DNA from: Gammaproteobacteria bacterium
Lineage (GTDB): Bacteria; Pseudomonadota; Gammaproteobacteria; VBWC01
Assembly: GCA_023266115.1 (NCBI GenBank)
Contig: JAHFRU010000017.1
Location: 1 to 55,430, forward strand
Length of the DNA stretch: 55,430 nucleotides
Reading direction: 5' to 3'
Part shown: positions 22,969 to 32,542 of the stretch, one piece after another
Layout: every line of letters begins with the position of its first letter
Position numbering within the stretch: position 1 is the stretch's first letter
Notes under the pieces: generated by a model
The model's database searches: none
What the model saw: only the letters and a program-made list of their open reading frames with translations
What the model was told of the DNA's origin: nothing
Position numbers and translations under genes: made by a program

Positions 22969-24096
22969 GTGAAGTCCCCGTCGAGTCTTGCGTACATTCG
23001 GCAGCTATGCTGCCTCGGTCTGGATAGCGAGCTCACTATTCCCGTGCTGTTACGGGAACTCCGCGCGATTGTTCCGTACCAGTGCGCCGTTTTTTGCTGG
23101 ATTGGCGCGAACGGCGAGTTGCGAAATCTTTATTCCGAGCCGCTGGATTTTTACGAATCGTTGCGCGATGAACATCATGCGGCCTGTATTCCCGGCAGCG
23201 CAGGTACGCCGGCGAAAGGCCTGTTGCGCGTGGATATACGGCCGGGTATCTATGCCGAGGAGGATCTCGTCGTTAATGCCGGCGCCTTCCTGTCGGCAAT
23301 TTCGTGGCCGGTCATCGCCGAAAGGCTGCACCTCGGTCCGGTCATTGCCGCGGTGGCGGGCCACCGCGGTATCGCAAAGGGCGCATTGTTTCTGGTGCGT
23401 GCCGCCGGGCAGCCGGGTTTCACCGCGTGCGACAGGCAACTGATCGAGGGGATTTCGCCGGATTTGTCGGCGGCGCTGACCCGGCGTCACACGAGCCGGC
23501 CGAATTACAGCGATAGCGGTGCGGAGGGGATGATCATCAGCGATAGCGACGGGTCTATCCGGCATCTGTGCGCGAAAGCGCGCCACCTGCTTATCCTGTC
23601 CTGCCATTCCAATCTGACACTGTGCGAGACGAAACCGGACCAGATTCGATTGTCAAACACTGCGTTGAGGTGTTTGTTGCAACGACATTCGCGCAACCAC
23701 GATCAGCCGCCAGACATCGATACACCGCTGTTGCAGGAGAATCGCTGGGGACAGTTCCTGTTCCGTTCGTTCCGCCTTGAGGTTGCGCAGGCCAATCATG
23801 AGCCGATGATTGGTATCATGGTGCGACATCAGGTGCCGTTACCGCTCAAATTACTGGCAGCCATGAAAAACGCGCCGTTGTCCGGCAAGCAAAAGGAGGT
23901 TTGTTTGATGCTCTCCGACGGATTATCGCATGGCGAAATCGCCGGCCAGCTGAGCATCAGCATTCATACGGCGATTGATCACGTTCGCAAGATCTACCAG
24001 AAAATGAACGTGCACAGCCGCGACGAGCTGCTGGACATCTTTCTCGAAAATCGCATCAGAGGTGTATCGTTTCCGGCGGGGCTGGAACGGCACTGA
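22969..24096 (+). CDS. LuxR-type (HTH) transcriptional regulator
   Basis: A 375-residue protein. The C-terminal 60 residues are a LuxR/FixJ helix-turn-helix (LSGKQKEVCLMLSDGLSHGE, then IAGQLSISIHTAIDHVRKIYQKMNV in two pieces). The N-terminal 300 residues resemble a GAF/PAS-like sensor with no recognised ligand motif and no phospho-acceptor Asp, so it is not a classical response regulator. GTG 22969 is preceded by AAGGAGG, a strong ribosome site. It lies 362 bp upstream of the unknown-protein/LodA/LodB gene set on the same strand and is a natural candidate for its regulator, which is inference from position only. Confidence 0.87.
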   Translation: MKSPSSLAYIRQLCCLGLDSELTIPVLLRELRAIVPYQCAVFCWIGANGELRNLYSEPLDFYESLRDEHHAACIPGSAGTPAKGLLRVDIRPGIYAEEDLVVNAGAFLSAISWPVIAERLHLGPVIAAVAGHRGIAKGALFLVRAAGQPGFTACDRQLIEGISPDLSAALTRRHTSRPNYSDSGAEGMIISDSDGSIRHLCAKARHLLILSCHSNLTLCETKPDQIRLSNTALRCLLQRHSRNHDQPPDIDTPLLQENRWGQFLFRSFRLEVAQANHEPMIGIMVRHQVPLPLKLLAAMKNAPLSGKQKEVCLMLSDGLSHGEIAGQLSISIHTAIDHVRKIYQKMNVHSRDELLDIFLENRIRGVSFPAGLERH

Positions 24097-24458: not shown

Positions 24459-27395
24459 ATGGAAGAATTATTCAGATTTTTACTGGCGCGTCCGGCGGAT
24501 CGTATCGATACGAAGAAGGATACCGTCCGGGTCCGGCCATCAGGTGACTATCGGGCGCAGTTGAACGAAGCGCGGGCATCCGGGAATCCGCGTGTGGCGT
24601 CGTTACGCATCGCCACCGAGTTTCGTGCCGGCGGCCGCGAGATCAGATCGATCGATAATCTCAAGTACGGCGAACTTCTGAACGAATTGTCGAAGCAATT
24701 GCGGGGCGTGGACGACATGCCGCTTGACGGTCTGAACAAGCTTGTTACGAAGCTGTTCGACGTCGACGCCGAACAGCTGGTGACCAATACCAGTTACACG
24801 CGCGATCTGCAGCATCTGGGTGACGTGATTGTGACTTCCGCGATCCTCGGGCAGGATGGCATCGTCACTTTGGAGGGCGCGGCCCGTTTGTTACGCGTGA
24901 TGGCAGTCATCGACGCCGTGGCGGCGGGTGATGTCTCGCTGGCCGCGAACGGTAGACTTGCCGATGTACTGGCGACGAGCCTGCTATTGCCTGAGGATAT
25001 CTTCCCTATTCCGGTACAGCGCGCGACCGGTAACCCGGCGGCGGACGATGCGGCGGGGTCCGGCACCGGAACGCTGGACACCAGCGAATTACGGCGGCGC
25101 CGCGATGCGGTATATGCGACCTACACGATGCTGACGCGCCTCGACCCGGATCACATCGATATTCCCGACAAACAAGACGCCTTCGAGGCGCGCGCGATGG
25201 AATATTCACCGGCCGCCGCGGTACCGCCGGTCGCTCCGACGATGTATCGGGAGGCGGCAGGCATCGGGATGCGTGCTGAAGCGCTGCACGTACTGCCGGC
25301 AAGCGAAGCAGGAGCGTTCAATCTTGCCGCCACCGCGCGCGTGGTACTGAAACCGGAGGTGACCGCGGCGTTCGGTACCAGTGAGCGCGGGGTGCTCGCG
25401 CAACGCAACCTCGATCTCACCCGCGTAACCGTGCCGACAGCACTGGACCGCTTGTCGGTGGAACTTGCCGACGTCGAAATGAAACTGGCCGAGGCCACCG
25501 CGGCGCCGACGACGATGGTGCAGCGGCTCGGCAGCCAGTATTACGTCGGTGAAGTGCTGGCGCCCCTGCACGGCTTTCCCAAGCACGCCGCTGTTCCGAC
25601 CACGCACGGCAGCATCACGCCGGCGGGGATCGGTGATCTGCTGGTCGTCAAGCAGTTCCTGAAGCGCTATGAGGCGCGTGAGCTAGCTCATATCGAGAAC
25701 ATCCTGAAGGGTGAGTACAAGGAGCGCATCCATCGTCGCTCGCGCACCACCGAGGAGACCATCACGGTCGAGACGGAGGTAAAGAAAGAAGAGGAGCGCG
25801 ATCAGCAGACGACGGAGCGTTTCGAGCTGAAGACCGAGGCCAGCGAGATCGTCAAGCAGGACCAGAGCCTCAAGCTTGGCCTGGCAGTGACCGCGAAATA
25901 CGGCCCGATGGTCGAGATCAAGGCGACGGCCGATTTCGCCATGAATCAATCGAAGGAAGAATCAAAGAAGGTCGCGACCAGCTACAGCAAGGACGTCACC
26001 AGCCGCGCCTCCAGCAAGGTGTTCGAGCGCCGCCGCGAGGAGCGCATCCTGAAGACCATCGAGGTGTTCGAGGAAAAGAACACCCATGGCGTCGACAACA
26101 AGGCCGGCGGCGGCCACGTCATCGGGCAGTACCAGTGGGTCGACAAGGTCTACGAGGCGCAGGTGTACAACTACGGCAAGCGCTTGCTGTTCGACATTAT
26201 GTTGCCTGAGCCGGCGGCGTTCTTGCTCTATGCGATGGGCAAACAGCCGAAGGCCGGCGCCGATCTCGTCAAGCCATGGCCGTTCACGCTGACACCAGCG
26301 GACATTACCGAGTGGAACTACAGCTATTACGTGAAGCAGTACGAGGCGGCCGGGGTGAATCCGCCGCCGCCGCCGTACGCGACGGTATCAAAGGCGCTCG
26401 ACGGCAAGGGCACTGAAAACGATGGTACGACAAAAGCGTTCGAAGTGCCGTTGCCTGATGGCTACAGCGCGATCACCGGCAATGTCGGCGTCTGGTACAA
26501 CCGCTGGAGCGGCGGCACCGTGGACATGGTGGTCGGCAAGGTCATGCATCGTTTTAGCGACAATGGCGGCTGGAGTTTCTCGCTGGCCTCGGAAACCGGC
26601 ATGGTCGCGGTCGCGCTCAAGACTTACAAGGCCGAGGTATTCGCAGCGGCAGTGGAAATCTATTGTCAGCGATCCGAGCGCGCGCTGACGGACTGGAAGC
26701 TGAAGACACACACGTCGATCATGCAGGCCTACCAGAAGTTGTTGCGCGATTACGAAGACAAGCTCGCCGCGCTCGAAGTACAGGCGGCACAGCAATTCCA
26801 GGGCCGCAATCCGGTCGAGAACGAACGCCTGATTCGCGCCGAGCTGAAGAAGGGCTCGATCTCGGTGTTCACCGCGCAGCACTACGACATGTTCGGCGCG
26901 ATTGTCTCCAGCCCGCAAGGCTATCCGCAGGCGGATCTGCCGGAGGCCTATGCCGAGGGCAAGTACATCCGTTTCTTCGAGCAGGCGTTCGAATGGGAGC
27001 AGATGATGTATTTCTTCTATCCCTATTTCTGGGGCCGCAAGAGCAACTGGGTCAACCGCTCGCTGTTGCAGGACGTCGATCCGATGTTCGCCGATTTCAT
27101 CAAGGCCGGTGCGGCGCGCGCGGTATTGCCGGTGCGGCCGGGCTTCGAAAAGGCGATGGCGCATTTCATGGATACCGGACAGATATGGGACGGCGGCGAT
27201 TTGCCGCCGATCACCAGTCCGTTGTATGTCAGCATCATCGAAGAGATCCGCGAGCGCGACAAGGCGCCGGGCGACGAAGTAGCGCAGGGCGATCCGTGGG
27301 ATGTCCATCTGCCCACCACGCTGGTGAAGCTGCGCGACGAGGCGACGCTGCCGGAATGGCACAAGAACGCGCAGGGCGAGTGGGTGCCGGTCTAG
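24459..27395 (+). CDS. 978-residue protein of unknown family preceding a LodA/LodB pair
   Basis: A large protein without signal peptide, lipobox or obvious membrane segment. Residues 1-190 are mixed alpha/beta. About 410-480 form a highly charged coiled-coil-like stretch rich in Glu, Lys, Arg and Thr (RSRTTEETITVETEV, then KKEEERDQQTTERFEL). About 480-560 alternate short strands and charged helices (VTAKYGPMVEIKATADFAM). YNYGKRLLFDIMLPEPAAF lies near residue 575. About 655-735 are beta-rich, and 760-978 are again helical (NPVENERLIRAELKKGS). No catalytic motif was recognised. ATG 24459 follows GGAGAG. The gap to the oxidase gene is 30 bp, so it is likely one transcript. Candidate roles are a scaffold, carrier or secretion partner for the oxidase. 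All are inference. Confidence 0.8.
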   Translation: MEELFRFLLARPADRIDTKKDTVRVRPSGDYRAQLNEARASGNPRVASLRIATEFRAGGREIRSIDNLKYGELLNELSKQLRGVDDMPLDGLNKLVTKLFDVDAEQLVTNTSYTRDLQHLGDVIVTSAILGQDGIVTLEGAARLLRVMAVIDAVAAGDVSLAANGRLADVLATSLLLPEDIFPIPVQRATGNPAADDAAGSGTGTLDTSELRRRRDAVYATYTMLTRLDPDHIDIPDKQDAFEARAMEYSPAAAVPPVAPTMYREAAGIGMRAEALHVLPASEAGAFNLAATARVVLKPEVTAAFGTSERGVLAQRNLDLTRVTVPTALDRLSVELADVEMKLAEATAAPTTMVQRLGSQYYVGEVLAPLHGFPKHAAVPTTHGSITPAGIGDLLVVKQFLKRYEARELAHIENILKGEYKERIHRRSRTTEETITVETEVKKEEERDQQTTERFELKTEASEIVKQDQSLKLGLAVTAKYGPMVEIKATADFAMNQSKEESKKVATSYSKDVTSRASSKVFERRREERILKTIEVFEEKNTHGVDNKAGGGHVIGQYQWVDKVYEAQVYNYGKRLLFDIMLPEPAAFLLYAMGKQPKAGADLVKPWPFTLTPADITEWNYSYYVKQYEAAGVNPPPPPYATVSKALDGKGTENDGTTKAFEVPLPDGYSAITGNVGVWYNRWSGGTVDMVVGKVMHRFSDNGGWSFSLASETGMVAVALKTYKAEVFAAAVEIYCQRSERALTDWKLKTHTSIMQAYQKLLRDYEDKLAALEVQAAQQFQGRNPVENERLIRAELKKGSISVFTAQHYDMFGAIVSSPQGYPQADLPEAYAEGKYIRFFEQAFEWEQMMYFFYPYFWGRKSNWVNRSLLQDVDPMFADFIKAGAARAVLPVRPGFEKAMAHFMDTGQIWDGGDLPPITSPLYVSIIEEIRERDKAPGDEVAQGDPWDVHLPTTLVKLRDEATLPEWHKNAQGEWVPV

Positions 27396-27425: not shown

Positions 27426-29204
27426 GTGGCGCTACCGCCCATTTATAAAATCCATCCGGCGATCGGCATTGCCCGCCTCGGCAACGCCGATCGCAATGCG
27501 TTTTTCATCGGTCCCGAATTTCCGGGCCGGCCGGCAACCGGCGATGCGACTATCGGCACCACAGTTCCCGATTTCAAATCGGGTGGCAAGATCAAGCCGC
27601 AGGCCGCGCGTTTCCGTGTCTGGGAATATGTCGACAAGGGTGGCAAGTACGAGGCCAGCCGCGAAATCAATCTCGATGAAAAAGACTGCGTAGCGATCAA
27701 CTGGACGGTCCATCTCGCCAACCGCAAGTCGTCGTTTTTCAATTTCGACGGCATGATGGGCGAGGAGCGTGCGCACCCGGCCGGCAATCGCCGCAACAAC
27801 GGCTTCGTCGCCGACCGGCGCCGCCTCGAAATTGATCCGCTGCCGCGGGCCATCAGCGGCAAGAGCAAGCCGCCGGTGAAATTCAGTAAGGGAAGCAGCA
27901 GCACTCCGGCCAATGAGTTATGGCCGAATCCGGCGCCGTCGCCGCCGATCGAGTACCTCGGTGAACTGCGCACTGACGCGCAGGGACGTTTGATTGTCAT
28001 CGGGGGACAGGGACTGTCGAGCTCGGTCGGCGGCGCGCCGCTGGTGCATTACGCCAACAACGATAACTGGTTTGACGATGTCTCCGATGGCCCGGTCAAG
28101 GCATCGATAGTGTTGCGCGACAAGGCCAACAAGCAGCACACCATTCCGGTAACCGGCGCCTGGGTATTGTGCGGCCCGCCGGATTTCGCGCCGACGCTCG
28201 CCAGCGTCGTCACGTTGTACGACGTGTTGTACCACATGGCGGCAGTGGAGTTGACGCTGCCAGCCAACGAGGCGTTATACACCACAGTGCTGAAATCGCT
28301 CGGCGACATCAACAAGGAATTCAAGGCCGCCGGTGCGGCGAAGCTGGCGGCGTATAAGCCATCGTATAACGACGAGATATACCCGTTCCTGCGCCGCGGG
28401 CTGGAGCAGGTGTTCGTGTTCGAGATGCTGAAATACTTTCATAGCAGCGTCAAAAAAATAAGTCTGGGCGATTCGAGCGCGGCGGCACAGGCGGCCCGAC
28501 AGGCGGTTTTCGACCGGCTGCATACGCCCGGCCTGGCGGGTACCGGTGGCGCCAAGAACATGCCGAAGCTGCAGGGTGACGAACCGTACAAACCGGCGCA
28601 CACGCATCGCATGGTCAGCGTCACGCCGACGCAGTTTGCGTTGCTGGAGCAATGGGTAAAAGGAAATTTCGTCGACGCGTCGGGCGTGTTACCGGCACCG
28701 CCGCCGCCGGCCGTTGTCACGCCGCACGGTCTGGATCGTGCAGCGCTGGAGAATTGCGTCGGCGCCGCGTTCTATCCGGGTATCGAGGTGAGCTGGCAGG
28801 TCCGCAACAAGGCGTTGTTCAGCGAGCCATTCCGGATTAACCACACGGCGCTGTCGCAGTATCTGGGTGACGCCACGCCGATACGCGCCGGGCATTTTTC
28901 GCGGCAGATGGCCGTGCCGTGGCAGGCCGATTTTCTCGAATGCCGGCTTGATGGCGGCAACGGCTGGTGGCCGGCGCAGCGCCCCGATATCGCGTATCAG
29001 ACCAAGGCCGATTACGACGCCAGTCCGAAGAAAAGCGTCAACTGGGATCGTGCTTCCACCGGGGGCGTGACCGCAAACTGGCCGTCGGGCGGAGTCGCTC
29101 CGGTTAAAAAGGAAATGGTCGAACACTGGTACAAGTTCGGCATCCTGCGCGAGGGACCGCCGTATTATCATCTCGAGCTGGAACGCGAGCCGACGATTCC
29201 GTGA
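27426..29204 (+). CDS. LodA/GoxA-like CTQ-dependent amino-acid oxidase
   Basis: A 592-residue quinoprotein of the LodA/GoxA family, whose members oxidise lysine or glycine with release of NH3 and H2O2 using cysteine tryptophylquinone. Family marks are the opening IYKIHPAIGIARLGN, the VWEYVDKGGKY region, ALENCVGAAFYPGIEVSW with Cys444, and GGNGWWPAQRPD with Trp514/515. Cys444 and one of these Trp residues are the likely CTQ pair. DFLECRLDG and the HWYKFGILR tail also fit. No signal peptide is present, as in characterised LodA. The start is GTG 27426 with AGGA upstream. The gene lies between the 978-residue protein gene and a LodB-like maturase gene. Substrate specificity cannot be read. Confidence 0.9.
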   Translation: MALPPIYKIHPAIGIARLGNADRNAFFIGPEFPGRPATGDATIGTTVPDFKSGGKIKPQAARFRVWEYVDKGGKYEASREINLDEKDCVAINWTVHLANRKSSFFNFDGMMGEERAHPAGNRRNNGFVADRRRLEIDPLPRAISGKSKPPVKFSKGSSSTPANELWPNPAPSPPIEYLGELRTDAQGRLIVIGGQGLSSSVGGAPLVHYANNDNWFDDVSDGPVKASIVLRDKANKQHTIPVTGAWVLCGPPDFAPTLASVVTLYDVLYHMAAVELTLPANEALYTTVLKSLGDINKEFKAAGAAKLAAYKPSYNDEIYPFLRRGLEQVFVFEMLKYFHSSVKKISLGDSSAAAQAARQAVFDRLHTPGLAGTGGAKNMPKLQGDEPYKPAHTHRMVSVTPTQFALLEQWVKGNFVDASGVLPAPPPPAVVTPHGLDRAALENCVGAAFYPGIEVSWQVRNKALFSEPFRINHTALSQYLGDATPIRAGHFSRQMAVPWQADFLECRLDGGNGWWPAQRPDIAYQTKADYDASPKKSVNWDRASTGGVTANWPSGGVAPVKKEMVEHWYKFGILREGPPYYHLELEREPTIP

Positions 29205-29247: not shown

Positions 29248-30366
29248 ATGGAACACAATTCAACACGGTTCGACGTAGCGATAATCGGCGGCGGTCCAGC
29301 GGGCGTGGCGGCGGCGCTGACGGCGATCGCGGCAGGAATGACGGTCGCCATTATCAGTCCGCAACGCAGCCACCGTTCACCGAATGTCGAGCTGCTTTCC
29401 GGGCGCACCTGTTCGTTGTTACATGAGCTTGGTGTGTTCAGCCTTTTGCCTGATCAAGGCGCGGTTGAATGTTCCGGCATCTGGTCCAGCTGGGATGGCG
29501 GCAGTCCGGTAGAGCGGTTGGCGCCGTTCATGCCGCGCGGCGCCGGCTGGGTCGTTGATCGTACGGTGTTCGATGATGCGATGCTGGCGGTTGCGAAAGC
29601 GCGTGGCGCGCAACGGTTTGCCGGTCTGGCGAACGCAGTCGAATTTCATGACGACGGTGACTGGCGCGTTGCGGTCCAGACCGAGGCAGGGCGGTTGGGT
29701 CTGCGGTCACGGCTGCTGGTACTGGCGACGGGGCGCGGCGCGCGCCTGCGACAGTCGCTCGGCGCAATCCACCGGTGCGAGGATGATCTGGTGGCGTTCC
29801 AGTTATGGGACGAGACATTGGCCTCGGTTGCGGCGAGGGACCACATGCTGACACTCGCTGCGGCGGAGCGCGGCTGGTGGTACGCGCTGCCGCATCCGGC
29901 CGGCGGAACATTTACCGGTTACTGCACGTCGTCCGTGCACGCCCGCGAGGTCCATGCGTCTGACCTGCGGCAATGGCCGGCCTGGCATGCCGATACGCCA
30001 GTGCCGACGTCGGCGTCAGCCGCGCCTGTCGTTAGCCGCCGGTGGCGCGGCCGTTCCGCAAGTGTCGGCTGGTTACAACCCGGTGCCGGTCACCAGTGGG
30101 CCGCGGTTGGCGATGCGGCCTGCGCGGTCGATCCGCTGAGCGGCCAGGGGGTCGCGTTCGCACTGGAGTCGGGTATGCAGGCCATGCGTCTTTATGCGGC
30201 CGTGCGTTTGCTATCCGCCAACTGGCAGCCGGAGTATCTGCGCTGGCTGCAGGAGGTTCGTGACGAACATTTTCAGCAACGCCGGCAACACTACCTCGCC
30301 AGCGCAATACCGGCACCGTTCTGGCAACAGCGCCGCGCCGGTTCCCTGGCGCCAGACGGTGGCTGA
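29248..30366 (+). CDS. LodB/GoxB-like FAD-dependent maturase
   Basis: A 372-residue flavoprotein. The N-terminal dinucleotide motif is VAIIGGGPAGVAAALTA (residues about 10-26), and the second FAD motif GDAACAVDPLSGQGVAFALE lies near residue 290. It belongs to the tryptophan-halogenase/LodB-type branch. LodB and GoxB are needed to build the CTQ cofactor of the adjacent oxidase. It starts 43 bp after the oxidase stop on the same strand. The conserved pairing of the two genes makes the maturase role likely here, though it is inferred from family and position. Confidence 0.87.
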   Translation: MEHNSTRFDVAIIGGGPAGVAAALTAIAAGMTVAIISPQRSHRSPNVELLSGRTCSLLHELGVFSLLPDQGAVECSGIWSSWDGGSPVERLAPFMPRGAGWVVDRTVFDDAMLAVAKARGAQRFAGLANAVEFHDDGDWRVAVQTEAGRLGLRSRLLVLATGRGARLRQSLGAIHRCEDDLVAFQLWDETLASVAARDHMLTLAAAERGWWYALPHPAGGTFTGYCTSSVHAREVHASDLRQWPAWHADTPVPTSASAAPVVSRRWRGRSASVGWLQPGAGHQWAAVGDAACAVDPLSGQGVAFALESGMQAMRLYAAVRLLSANWQPEYLRWLQEVRDEHFQQRRQHYLASAIPAPFWQQRRAGSLAPDGG

Positions 30367-30508: not shown

Positions 30509-32542
30509 ATGCAGGTACAAGGGACAGGTGATTGCGGTTACGTGCAGCCGTCGGAAAAAAAAGCTGTCGCGCGGCATGCGCTGTCGATAATCGTTCTTGC
30601 GGGCGCGCTGGTGCCGGCGGCGTTTGCCGGGCCAGGTGATCTGGACCCGACGTTCGGGGTCGGCGGCAAGGCGGTCAGTGATTTTTCCGCGGCGGGAGCG
30701 GATATTGATTCGGCCAACGGCGTTGCCATCCAGACAGATGGAAAAATTCTCGTCGCTGGCTATACCTATGATTCCGGTGCGATCCCGACGCAGCATTTTA
30801 TGGTCACCCGTTATAACACCGACGGCAGCCTGGACGCCGGTTTTGGCGTCGGCGGACTGGTGCAAAGCGACTTTGGGTTTCCCGGCGTGTTTTATGATGT
30901 CGCGGTGCGGGGCGATGGCAAGATCGTTGCGGCCGGGACCATTCAGACTACGCCGCTAACGACCGGTGCGCGGTTTATTGTGGCCCGCTACCACAGTAAT
31001 GGTACGCAGGATCTGTCATTCGGGTCCGGCGGTTTCGTCGTTACCTCCGCCGGGAGCAGTGGCACCGGGGGCTCGGCCGTAGTGATACAGCCCGACAGCA
31101 AGATCGTGGTGGCTGGCACTACCGGGCTGGCGCTAAACGGTCTGAACTTCGCGCTGGCGCGCTACAATCCCGACGGGTCGCTCGATGCCTCGTTTGATGG
31201 CGACGGCATTGTTACCACCGACATCGGCGGCAGTGGTGACGCGGTGCACGATCTGGCGCTGCAGGGTGACGGCAAGATCGTCGCGGTTGGCGGCAGTTTT
31301 GATCTGGCGCACTTTCCGAACATGGTTCTCTCTGCGGTCCGCTACAACACCGATGGCAGTCTTGACACTACGTTTGATGGCGACGGTAAGGTCACGACGA
31401 CGCTCGGCAGCACCACTGATGCCGCCAATGTCGTCGCGATCCAGGCCGACGGCAGGATCGTCGTCGCCGGTTCGCGGATCAACGCAGGAAACGGCGCGCC
31501 CGACATGGTGGTGTTGCGTTACCTGACCACCGGTGGTCTCGACACCTCGTTCGGCGGTACCGGTATCGTGATCACGCCGTTCCCCTACTTGGGTAGCGCC
31601 GCGAACGGCGTTGTGATCCAGAGCAGCGGCAAGATCGTCGCCGGCGGCGTCGCTCCCGGATCGGGATCGGGCAACGATTTCGCGCTCGCGCGTTACAACA
31701 GCGACGGCACGCTGGACACGACGTTTGGCACGCTTGGGCTGGTGACCACGCCGGTCGCACTTGACCGAGACGATTTCGGTAATGCTTTGGCATTGCAGGC
31801 GGACGGCAAGCTGGTGTTGGCCGGGTCTAGCAAGACCTTCAGCGGCGATACGGACGTGGCGCTGGCGCGTTACAGCGGCGAGACTGTGGTGACCAACCGC
31901 CCGCCGGTCGCGAATTCGGGGCCAGACCAGGTGATGATGTGCCGCTCCTCGGCCGGCGCGGCGGTCATGCTGAACGGTGCGGGCTCCTCCGATCCGGATG
32001 GCGATACGCTGAGCTATGCGTGGACCGGTCAGTTTGCCGAAGGCGGTGGCGCGGTTGCCGGTGTCGGTCCGGTGGTGACACTGCCGCTCGGACAATCGAT
32101 CGTCTCGTTGGTCGTCAACGATGGGCAGGTCGATTCCGCAGCGGACGACGTGCTGATTAAGGTCAACGTCGCGGTCAGCGGTCTGAAGCCGCCGCTGGAC
32201 ATGCTGGTACCGGCCGGCGGAACAGTCATATTTCCCGACAAGGCGTTCAAGCAGGGCCGCACGCTTCCGCTGAAGCTCGAGCTGTCTTGCGGCGGCATGC
32301 CGCTGGTGGATGTGGTGAACAAGCCGCGGATCGTCCGGCTGGAACGTATGGGCAGCCCGCTCGATATCGACACGCTGGATCTGGATGCCGGCGCGGCGAA
32401 CGACAATGGTCTGGTGTTCCGTCTGTCGGACAGCCAGTGGATCTACAACCTCAGCAGTCGCGACCTGTTGACCGGGACCTATGTCGTGACCATCCGCCTG
32501 CCGGACGGTACCGACCATCAGGCCGGGTTTGTCCTGAAGTAG
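30509..32542 (+). CDS. Secreted delta-60-repeat protein with PKD-like and PxKF C-terminal domains
   Basis: A 677-residue exported protein. The signal segment is at about residues 25-41 (SIIVLAGALVPAAFAG) after an unusual 20-residue polar leader. About eight delta-60 repeats follow (each around 55 residues, with GDLDPTFG-, DGSLDxxF- and DGKIVxAG-type motifs), probably a beta-propeller. A PKD-like domain begins near residue 470 (NRPPVANSGPDQ, then SSDPDGDTLSYAW). The last 120 residues have FKQGRTLPLKLELSCGG and NDNGLVFRLSDSQWIYNLS, the PxKF-type pattern. AAGGAG precedes ATG 30509 by 8 bp. The protein is likely cell-surface or secreted; the function is unknown. Confidence 0.87.
   Translation: MQVQGTGDCGYVQPSEKKAVARHALSIIVLAGALVPAAFAGPGDLDPTFGVGGKAVSDFSAAGADIDSANGVAIQTDGKILVAGYTYDSGAIPTQHFMVTRYNTDGSLDAGFGVGGLVQSDFGFPGVFYDVAVRGDGKIVAAGTIQTTPLTTGARFIVARYHSNGTQDLSFGSGGFVVTSAGSSGTGGSAVVIQPDSKIVVAGTTGLALNGLNFALARYNPDGSLDASFDGDGIVTTDIGGSGDAVHDLALQGDGKIVAVGGSFDLAHFPNMVLSAVRYNTDGSLDTTFDGDGKVTTTLGSTTDAANVVAIQADGRIVVAGSRINAGNGAPDMVVLRYLTTGGLDTSFGGTGIVITPFPYLGSAANGVVIQSSGKIVAGGVAPGSGSGNDFALARYNSDGTLDTTFGTLGLVTTPVALDRDDFGNALALQADGKLVLAGSSKTFSGDTDVALARYSGETVVTNRPPVANSGPDQVMMCRSSAGAAVMLNGAGSSDPDGDTLSYAWTGQFAEGGGAVAGVGPVVTLPLGQSIVSLVVNDGQVDSAADDVLIKVNVAVSGLKPPLDMLVPAGGTVIFPDKAFKQGRTLPLKLELSCGGMPLVDVVNKPRIVRLERMGSPLDIDTLDLDAGAANDNGLVFRLSDSQWIYNLSSRDLLTGTYVVTIRLPDGTDHQAGFVLK

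What the first reader, a model, noticed from the sequence alone, without database searches (positions are those of the whole stretch)
25680..26220. Charged coiled-coil-like core in the 978-residue protein
Residues about 410-560 change from ordinary composition to runs of Glu, Lys, Arg and Thr followed by short amphipathic strands, then the conserved-looking YNYGKRLLFDIMLPEPAAF. This suggests an assembly-forming or tubular domain rather than an enzyme.
Basis: partly seen in the sequence, partly recalled or inferred. Interest (0 to 1): 0.55.

Follow-up and report, generated by a model that had tools for sequence, protein, structure and literature searches.

The report
Undescribed partner of interchangeable effector genes
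The charged stretch is a conserved part of a large, undescribed and probably mobile protein found in scattered bacteria and one archaeon, which often sits beside a different effector-like gene in different lineages and may help deploy that effector against other cells.

Summary
Residues 410-560 of the 978-residue protein (24459-27395 +) are strongly E/K/R/T-enriched, and the following motif is conserved in distant relatives. "Coiled coil" is not supported for the first charged arm (406-469). Across the family, residues 468-495 look like an amphipathic beta-hairpin, followed by an amphipathic helix (495-543).

The protein belongs to a patchy family (Pseudomonadota, Actinomycetota, Bacteroidota, Cyanobacteriota, a haloarchaeon; plasmids, prophage-like contigs) without a credible match in Pfam, NCBIfam, PHROGs or the PDB. 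The core (about 384-978) is conserved; residues 1-383 vary.

In 22 of 30 loci a same-strand ORF of at least 200 aa follows within 100 bp. Neighbours differ: LodA-type oxidase with flavoprotein (here), patatin, SIR2 (605 bp away), PhoD phosphatase, protein-arginine deiminase, tail-collar proteins; one locus has a toxin-like gene with spare cassettes. About half of the loci have no recognised neighbour domain.

Best reading: shared structural component of an effector-deploying conflict system, possibly pore- or translocon-forming. The genetic pattern is shown; the mechanism is inferred. AlphaFold (pLDDT 51-53) did not settle the stem; the jelly roll (638-739) was the only clearly modelled core domain.

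The parts
24459..27395 (+). 978-aa protein of an undescribed, patchily distributed family (variable N-terminal part, charged stem, jelly roll, C-terminal part)
   Evidence: ORF; no known family; relatives; alignments
24468..24494 (+). N-terminal motif LFRFLLARP (residues 4-12), recognisable as (L/V)F(R/K)FxxLRxP in many but not all members although the rest of the N-terminal part varies
   Evidence: N-termini listed
24459..25607 (+). variable N-terminal part, residues 1-383; residues 20-180 modelled as mostly helical with moderate confidence
   Evidence: a separate ORF in L069
25674..25865 (+). charged E/K/R/T arm, residues 406-469 (the finding)
   Evidence: composition; conserved, no helical periodicity
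25860..25943 (+). predicted amphipathic beta-hairpin, residues 468-495, with Y-G-P turn at 481-483
   Evidence: sequence pattern only
25941..26087 (+). amphipathic helical arm, residues 495-543
26166..26222 (+). conserved motif YNYGKRLLFDIMLPEPAAF, residues 570-588
26370..26675 (+). jelly-roll domain, residues 638-739 (generic fold)
26676..26798 (+). long helix, residues 740-780
26964..27149 (+). conserved C-terminal signature YIRFFEQAFEWE...YPYFWGR...VRPGFE, residues 836-897
27426..29204 (+). LodA-type (cysteine-tryptophylquinone) oxidase-like protein, 592 aa, 30 bp downstream
29248..30366 (+). GoxB/LodB/QhpG-like flavoprotein, presumed maturase of the oxidase
22969..24096 (+). LuxR-type regulator upstream; membership of the unit not shown
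   Evidence: a 375-aa ORF with the same start of sequence is upstream in L001

Best explanation
The charged segment is the stem of the conserved core of an undescribed protein that serves as the common structural component of a mobile effector-deploying system. Shown: the core is shared, and the adjacent gene is of different kinds in different lineages, several of them effector- or toxin-like. Inferred: the protein assembles into an oligomer and uses the charged arms and the amphipathic beta-hairpin (468-495) to reach or cross a membrane; the jelly roll binds a surface or helps assembly; the variable N-terminal part binds the partner or the target. In this window the effector would be a LodA-type oxidase that makes hydrogen peroxide, matured by the GoxB-like flavoprotein. 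No signal peptide is evident by eye in the core protein or the partners listed (no predictor was run), so release by cell lysis or by an unidentified route is assumed.
For: Same core, different neighbour: LodA + flavoprotein (window, L001, L002), patatin (L007, L035; upstream in L008 and L044, and by likeness in L050), SIR2_2 (L011, 605 bp away), PhoD (L067) and PAD at E 9e-45 (L068), Exo_endo_phos as second gene (L003), Collar (L032, L034, and by likeness L038). The next same-strand ORF of at least 200 aa is within 100 bp in 22 of 30 loci. In the tree the window's nine-row set (95% SH-aLRT) holds LodA, PAD, PhoD, HDY-type, 1007-aa and 746-aa partners and one locus (L045) without a partner. 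LodA_N occurs in 4 of 16 genomes that carry the gene, once each, and in 3 of these 4 it is the neighbour. L050 has a 744-aa protein with a weak Tox-MPTase4 match at its end, two short genes that begin with its linker, one with an ADP-ribosyltransferase domain, and a Tox-MPTase4 gene above cut-off. Patchy: 0.4-2.1% of genomes in six draws, query genomes included; on plasmids and prophage-like contigs. Hairpin pattern.
Against: No experiment or solved relative. AlphaFold confidence in the stem is 25-51 by block of ten, so the hairpin rests on sequence pattern. It is only weakly hydrophobic, looks poorly kept by eye in the collar subfamily, L003, L010 and L033, and stronger 12-residue strand patterns exist elsewhere in the core (881-898). 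14 of 30 loci have no neighbour with a recognised domain, and several calls are marginal (Exo_endo_phos 25.8 against 24.5 bits; PhoD 28.5 against 27) or below cut-off (Het-C, PT-TG, Ntox4). Collar and Mur-ligase neighbours are not obvious effectors. Patatin is common (49 matches in 16 genomes), so single adjacencies can be chance. Eight of 30 loci fail the 100-bp/200-aa rule (L009, L011, L012, L013, L039, L042, L045, L046), and the L033 ORF that passes was not kept by the gene caller. No control with random genes was run. No export system was looked for apart from contractile-particle markers.
Confidence: 0.4

Rival explanations
1. An intracellular anti-phage (abortive-infection) system: the core is a sensor or scaffold that activates an interchangeable effector (SIR2 NADase, patatin phospholipase, others).
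For: SIR2_2 and patatin neighbours; gene carried by prophage-like contigs and plasmids; L010 lies on a plasmid stretch with an N-6 DNA methylase, a restriction specificity subunit and VapC; no signal peptide evident by eye.
Against: PADLOC models: none for the window protein, one weak match in 26 members (LeoBC, 5e-4). LodA with maturase, PAD, tail-collar proteins and toxin cassettes are not usual defence effectors (recalled).
Confidence: 0.2
2. A tail-fibre/spike or cargo adaptor of contractile injection particles (eCIS, tailocins, prophages).
For: Phage Tail Collar protein downstream in L032 and L034 and, by likeness, L038; an eCIS_core gene about 2.3 kb from the L032 copy; eCIS_core in 2 of 12 genomes with the gene against 0 of 14 control genomes; holin and lysin genes near L042 and L043; sheath- and tube-like reading frames near L049/L050 (recalled resemblance).
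Against: No eCIS_core or sheath match in the window's genome; Phage_sheath_1 in 3 of 12 genomes, much as in the controls, 3 of 14. No PHROG match; no match in 50,697 phage records.
Confidence: 0.15
3. A secretion or folding accessory specific to the LodA-type oxidase.
For: Adjacent in three LodA loci.
Against: 12 of 16 genomes with the core gene have no LodA_N match and a 13th has one about 100 kb away. LodA is described as a two-gene operon with lodB (abstract of PMC3948610 in the listing; passages of PMC4417212).
Confidence: 0.1
4. A plain structural protein with no conflict role; its neighbours are there by chance at mobile hot spots.
For: Charged composition; patchy distribution; patatin common in genomes; no random-gene control was run.
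Against: Gaps of -41 to 86 bp in 22 of 30 loci; LodA and the flavoprotein kept beside the core in L002, where the core is 46.7% identical.
Confidence: 0.15

Closest known systems
Polymorphic toxin systems (Zhang et al. 2012, PMC3482391; passages read)
   Same: Diverse toxin domains and spare cassettes at L050; possibly also L008, L013 and L066, whose neighbours share weakly similar N-terminal parts (20-21% identity) but not their ends
   Different: Here the conserved protein is a separate gene with no recognised trafficking domain, and several partners are whole enzymes
Binary (AB-type) pore-forming toxins (recalled, not compared)
   Same: Idea of one pore/translocation protein plus a separate enzyme; amphipathic hairpin in a charged stem; jelly-roll domain
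   Different: No sequence match to a solved structure; partners mostly unrelated to each other
LodA/LodB and GoxA/GoxB quinoprotein oxidase operons (PMC4417212, passages read)
   Same: 27426-29204 and 29248-30366 match LodA/GoxA and GoxB/LodB; the cysteine at chain position 516 of 3weu is matched
   Different: Scores below the LodA and GoxA equivalog cut-offs, so substrate unknown; preceded by the 978-aa gene
Extracellular contractile injection systems
   Same: Tail-collar neighbours and one eCIS_core gene near L032
   Different: No eCIS_core or sheath match in the window's genome

Membership tests
Classical coiled coil | Helical hydrophobic periodicity in the charged arm | tested here: not met
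   406-469: helical moment p = 0.73; 495-543 does show it
Classical coiled coil | Confident long-helix structure | tested here: inconclusive
   helices predicted at block pLDDT 25-51
Beta-pore-forming or binary-toxin translocon | Membrane-length amphipathic beta-hairpin in a charged/polar stem | tested here: inconclusive
   best 26-residue strand-type window of the core, but no structural confirmation
Beta-pore-forming or binary-toxin translocon | Match to a solved member | tested here: inconclusive
   no sequence match; fold searches tested in effect only the jelly roll
Beta-pore-forming or binary-toxin translocon | Oligomeric pore formation | not testable with these tools
   needs experiment
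Polymorphic toxin system | Toxin with exchangeable C-terminal cassettes at the locus | tested here: inconclusive
   seen at L050; neighbours in the window scanned with Pfam showed none
Polymorphic toxin system | Known trafficking or pre-toxin domain in the 978-aa protein | tested here: not met
   no Pfam or NCBIfam match
eCIS | eCIS_core (PF13699) and sheath (PF04984) genes in the genome | tested here: not met
   none in G000; 2 of 12 and 3 of 12 genomes with the gene
Known anti-phage defence system | Match to a PADLOC model | tested here: not met
   none for the window protein; 1 of 26 members, weak
LodA-type quinoprotein oxidase (gene 27426-29204) | LodA_N and LodA_C domains and the cofactor cysteine | tested here: met
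   E 1e-60 and 1.5e-33; Cys aligned; that chain position 516 is the cofactor cysteine is recalled
LodA-type quinoprotein oxidase (gene 27426-29204) | Cofactor tryptophan | not tested
   the alignment ends before it
LodA or GoxA proper (gene 27426-29204) | Equivalog score | tested here: not met
   232 of 600 and 207 of 750 bits

The most novel reading that the evidence does not exclude
A previously unrecognised effector-delivery (translocon-like) protein shared by bacteria and archaea: one conserved pore or needle component, paired in different lineages with different whole-protein effectors (oxidase, arginine deiminase, phospholipase, phosphatase, NADase, polymorphic toxin), working without any known secretion machine.
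Probability: 0.25. Interest if true: 0.88.

Novelty: new variant of a known kind. Interest (0 to 1): 0.62.

Why it matters
If right, an unannotated family links several 'orphan' enzymes (LodA-like oxidases, bacterial arginine deiminases, patatins) to one deployment device, and gives a simple test of what those enzymes are for. It would also add a carrier to the list of known toxin-trafficking routes.

Tried and rejected
Known families: Pfam, NCBIfam, PHROGs and PDB sequence searches of the window protein, Pfam on nine further members, NCBIfam and PADLOC on 26 members, and profile searches of the PDB gave nothing credible (best Pfam: FAD-depend_C, E 0.18, below cut-off; NCBIfam: one of 26 members at E 0.0096; best PDB profile match E 0.29). 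Phage records: none. Viral contigs: relatives on 4 contigs over six completed scans (8 and 79 found none).

Structure: two AlphaFold jobs with 8 sequences each (mean pLDDT 53.0 and 51.4). In the core only the jelly roll with the following helix was clear, and its matches (FlhE, BcsB, furin-type P domains, GOLD domains, viral coats; Z up to 9.4) are generic. The viral-library search gave 53 matches at E up to 0.001, several of them tail proteins, with low TM-scores; I drew nothing from it. No enzyme or toxin was inferred from these searches, and absence of a fold match is not evidence.

eCIS as a general explanation was set aside. Papers: eight searches listed nothing whose title or abstract start describes this family; they cover only open-licence PubMed Central papers, and the family has no name to search for. 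Passages were read of PMC4417212, PMC3482391 and PMC12419801; other papers were seen only as search listings.

Recalled leads left untested: a caspase-like look of the HDY partner family, and DISARM-like genes beside L011.

Full report
WHAT IS THERE. The finding lies in an ORF of 978 codons, 24459-27395 (+). The composition change is real: E+K+R+T is 0.66 in residues 417-466, a value reached by 0 of 1000 shuffles and highest among 39 ORFs of at least 150 aa called in the window. The motif YNYGKRLLFDIMLPEPAAF is at residues 570-588.

WHAT FAMILY. The window protein has no credible match in Pfam, NCBIfam, PHROGs or PDB sequences; nor have nine further members in Pfam, nor 26 members in NCBIfam (one at E 0.0096), nor profiles against the PDB (best E 0.29). 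Relatives were found as three genome contigs (79%, 47% and 35% identity), fifteen plasmid records from Pseudomonadota, Actinomycetota, Bacteroidota, Cyanobacteriota and the haloarchaeon Natronorubrum, and four viral or prophage-like contigs. It is patchy: 3 of 143 relatives, 6 of 398 of the phylum, 1 of 244 of the cyanobacterial draw, that one being the query genome itself, 3 of 385, 6 of 369 and 4 of 292. These draws overlap, and each count includes the genome the draw was centred on. No phage record matched. The window's genome has one copy.

ANATOMY. In 26 family sequences the core is filled in nearly all rows, while the residues before position 375 number from 143 to 560 in 12 relatives. 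Many members still begin with a motif like (L/V)FRFxxLRxP. In one genome (L069) the N-terminal part and the core are separate ORFs. For strand-type amphipathicity, 468-493 and 470-495 rank first and second of 572 windows of 26 residues (31 rows), and 470-495 beats 2000 of 2000 shuffles (26 rows); the turn is Y-G-P. With 12-residue windows, stretches at 881-898 are stronger and 515-526 equals it, so the pattern is not unique. Residues 500-543 are helical-amphipathic (p 0.0035), and 406-469 show neither pattern (helix p 0.73, strand p 0.40). The most hydrophobic 19-residue stretch is borderline for a membrane helix (1.63, residues 144-162, in the variable part). AlphaFold with eight sequences gave a confident jelly roll (638-739) and the following helix (740-780) in both models, and a moderately confident helical N-terminal part in the full-length one; the stem was at 25-51. 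The jelly roll is of a generic type.

NEIGHBOURS. Downstream here are a LodA-type oxidase (LodA_N E 1e-60, LodA_C 1.5e-33; below equivalog cut-offs) and a GoxB/LodB/QhpG-like flavoprotein. The cysteine at chain position 516 of solved LodA (3weu) is matched; that this is the cofactor cysteine is recalled. The tryptophan was not tested. L001 and L002 have the same order of genes, with LodA_N confirmed there. LodA_N was found in 4 of 16 genomes, once each, and 3 of these are next to this gene; all 16 genomes were chosen for carrying the core gene. Elsewhere the near genes differ: patatin (L007, L035; upstream in L008, L044 and, by likeness, L050), SIR2_2 (L011), Exo_endo_phos as second gene (L003), Collar (L032, L034; L038 by 47% identity), a Mur ligase-like gene (L036), PhoD (L067) and PAD (L068). 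Weaker leads below cut-off are Het-C (L037), PT-TG (L066) and Ntox4 (L009). A partner family without Pfam match ('HDY') recurs in L005, L011, L036 and L065. By this count 16 of 30 loci have a recognised domain in a near gene: 12 by direct Pfam scan, L001 and L002 through, and L038 and L050 by likeness only. The window and L001, and L008, L044 and L050, are close relatives, so the independent number is smaller. The other 14 have none, and not every near gene of theirs was scanned (L033 and the gene next to L039 were not). In 22 of 30 loci the next same-strand ORF of at least 200 aa lies within 100 bp; the L033 ORF among these was not kept by the gene caller, and for L007 the distance was taken from the short gene that holds the end of the core. 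L009 and L012 fail only by the script's choice of ORF: their annotated next genes begin 62 bp after and at the stop of the core gene.

POLYMORPHIC TOXIN LINK. In L050, like a Chryseobacterium plasmid locus (L008), the second gene after this one encodes 744 aa, with a weak Tox-MPTase4 match at its end (E 5e-4, below cut-off). Further on, two short genes begin with the same linker (EVFGFGEEVADNAL), one of them with an ADP-ribosyltransferase domain (E 2e-8), and another short gene has Tox-MPTase4 above cut-off. A protein next to the L008 copy aligns with residues 43-557 of the 744-aa protein (21% identity) but not with its end; L013 and L066 have neighbours alike over about 500 N-terminal residues (20% identity) but not at their ends.

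TREE. In a 31-row tree the window's copy groups with L001 and L002 (99%), then within a nine-row set (95%) whose partners are LodA, a 1007-aa protein plus Exo_endo_phos, HDY, PAD, PhoD and a 746-aa unknown, with one locus (L045) without a partner. Partners thus change within one clade. It is a quick tree with 11 of 28 inner branches under 80% support.

HOW IT MAY WORK. Shown: a conserved core protein genetically tied to varied, often effector-like genes on patchy and partly mobile loci. Inferred: it assembles, the stem with its hairpin contacts or crosses a membrane, and the partner is delivered or activated. In the window the product would be a peroxide-making oxidase; such enzymes are described as antimicrobial through hydrogen peroxide (abstract starts in the listings). 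The chief rivals are an intracellular defence scaffold, a part of tail-like particles, and a LodA-specific accessory.

CONTROLS AND LIMITS. Patatin is common (49 matches in 16 genomes, each having at least one), and in only one of those genomes (G473) does a match lie beside the core gene, so single adjacencies are weak evidence. eCIS_core is absent from the window's genome, present in 2 of 12 genomes with the gene and 0 of 14 controls; sheath in 3 of 12 and 3 of 14. No matched control of random genes was run for effector-type neighbours. Absence of signal peptides was judged by eye only. Gene calls in unannotated loci came from a simple script. The paper searches listed nothing that describes this family.

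Noticed in passing
30509-32542 (+): 677-aa protein with delta-60/DUF5122 repeats, a weak PKD match and a weak match to the 'rightmost' PxKF domain, just after the oxidase genes; a 688-aa ORF is in the same place in L001.
   Followed up: no
L050 14308-21346: Polymorphic-toxin-like gene followed by short genes, two of them sharing its linker, with ADP-ribosyltransferase and Tox-MPTase4 domains.
   Followed up: partly
L005 11029-12114; L011 6357-7436; L036 11289-13667; L065 6139-7878: Recurrent partner family without Pfam match (shared FSH...GP.L..S/T stretch), downstream of the core gene or, in L011, upstream.
   Followed up: partly
L069 8870-11866 (-): N-terminal part (218 aa) and core (777 aa) are two ORFs, so the two may be separable modules, or the gene is broken.
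   Followed up: no
L066 8837-11839 (-): Copy split into three ORFs, apparently broken, beside a divergent gene with a weak pre-toxin match.
   Followed up: no
L034 6605-13461 and L038 6270-12449: Two collar-type loci share a sigma-factor-like gene (32% identity) and small paralogous proteins (up to 78% identity between the two genomes) beside the core gene.
   Followed up: no
L007 10692-10907: In the haloarchaeal copy the last part of the core lies in another frame as a short annotated gene.
   Followed up: no
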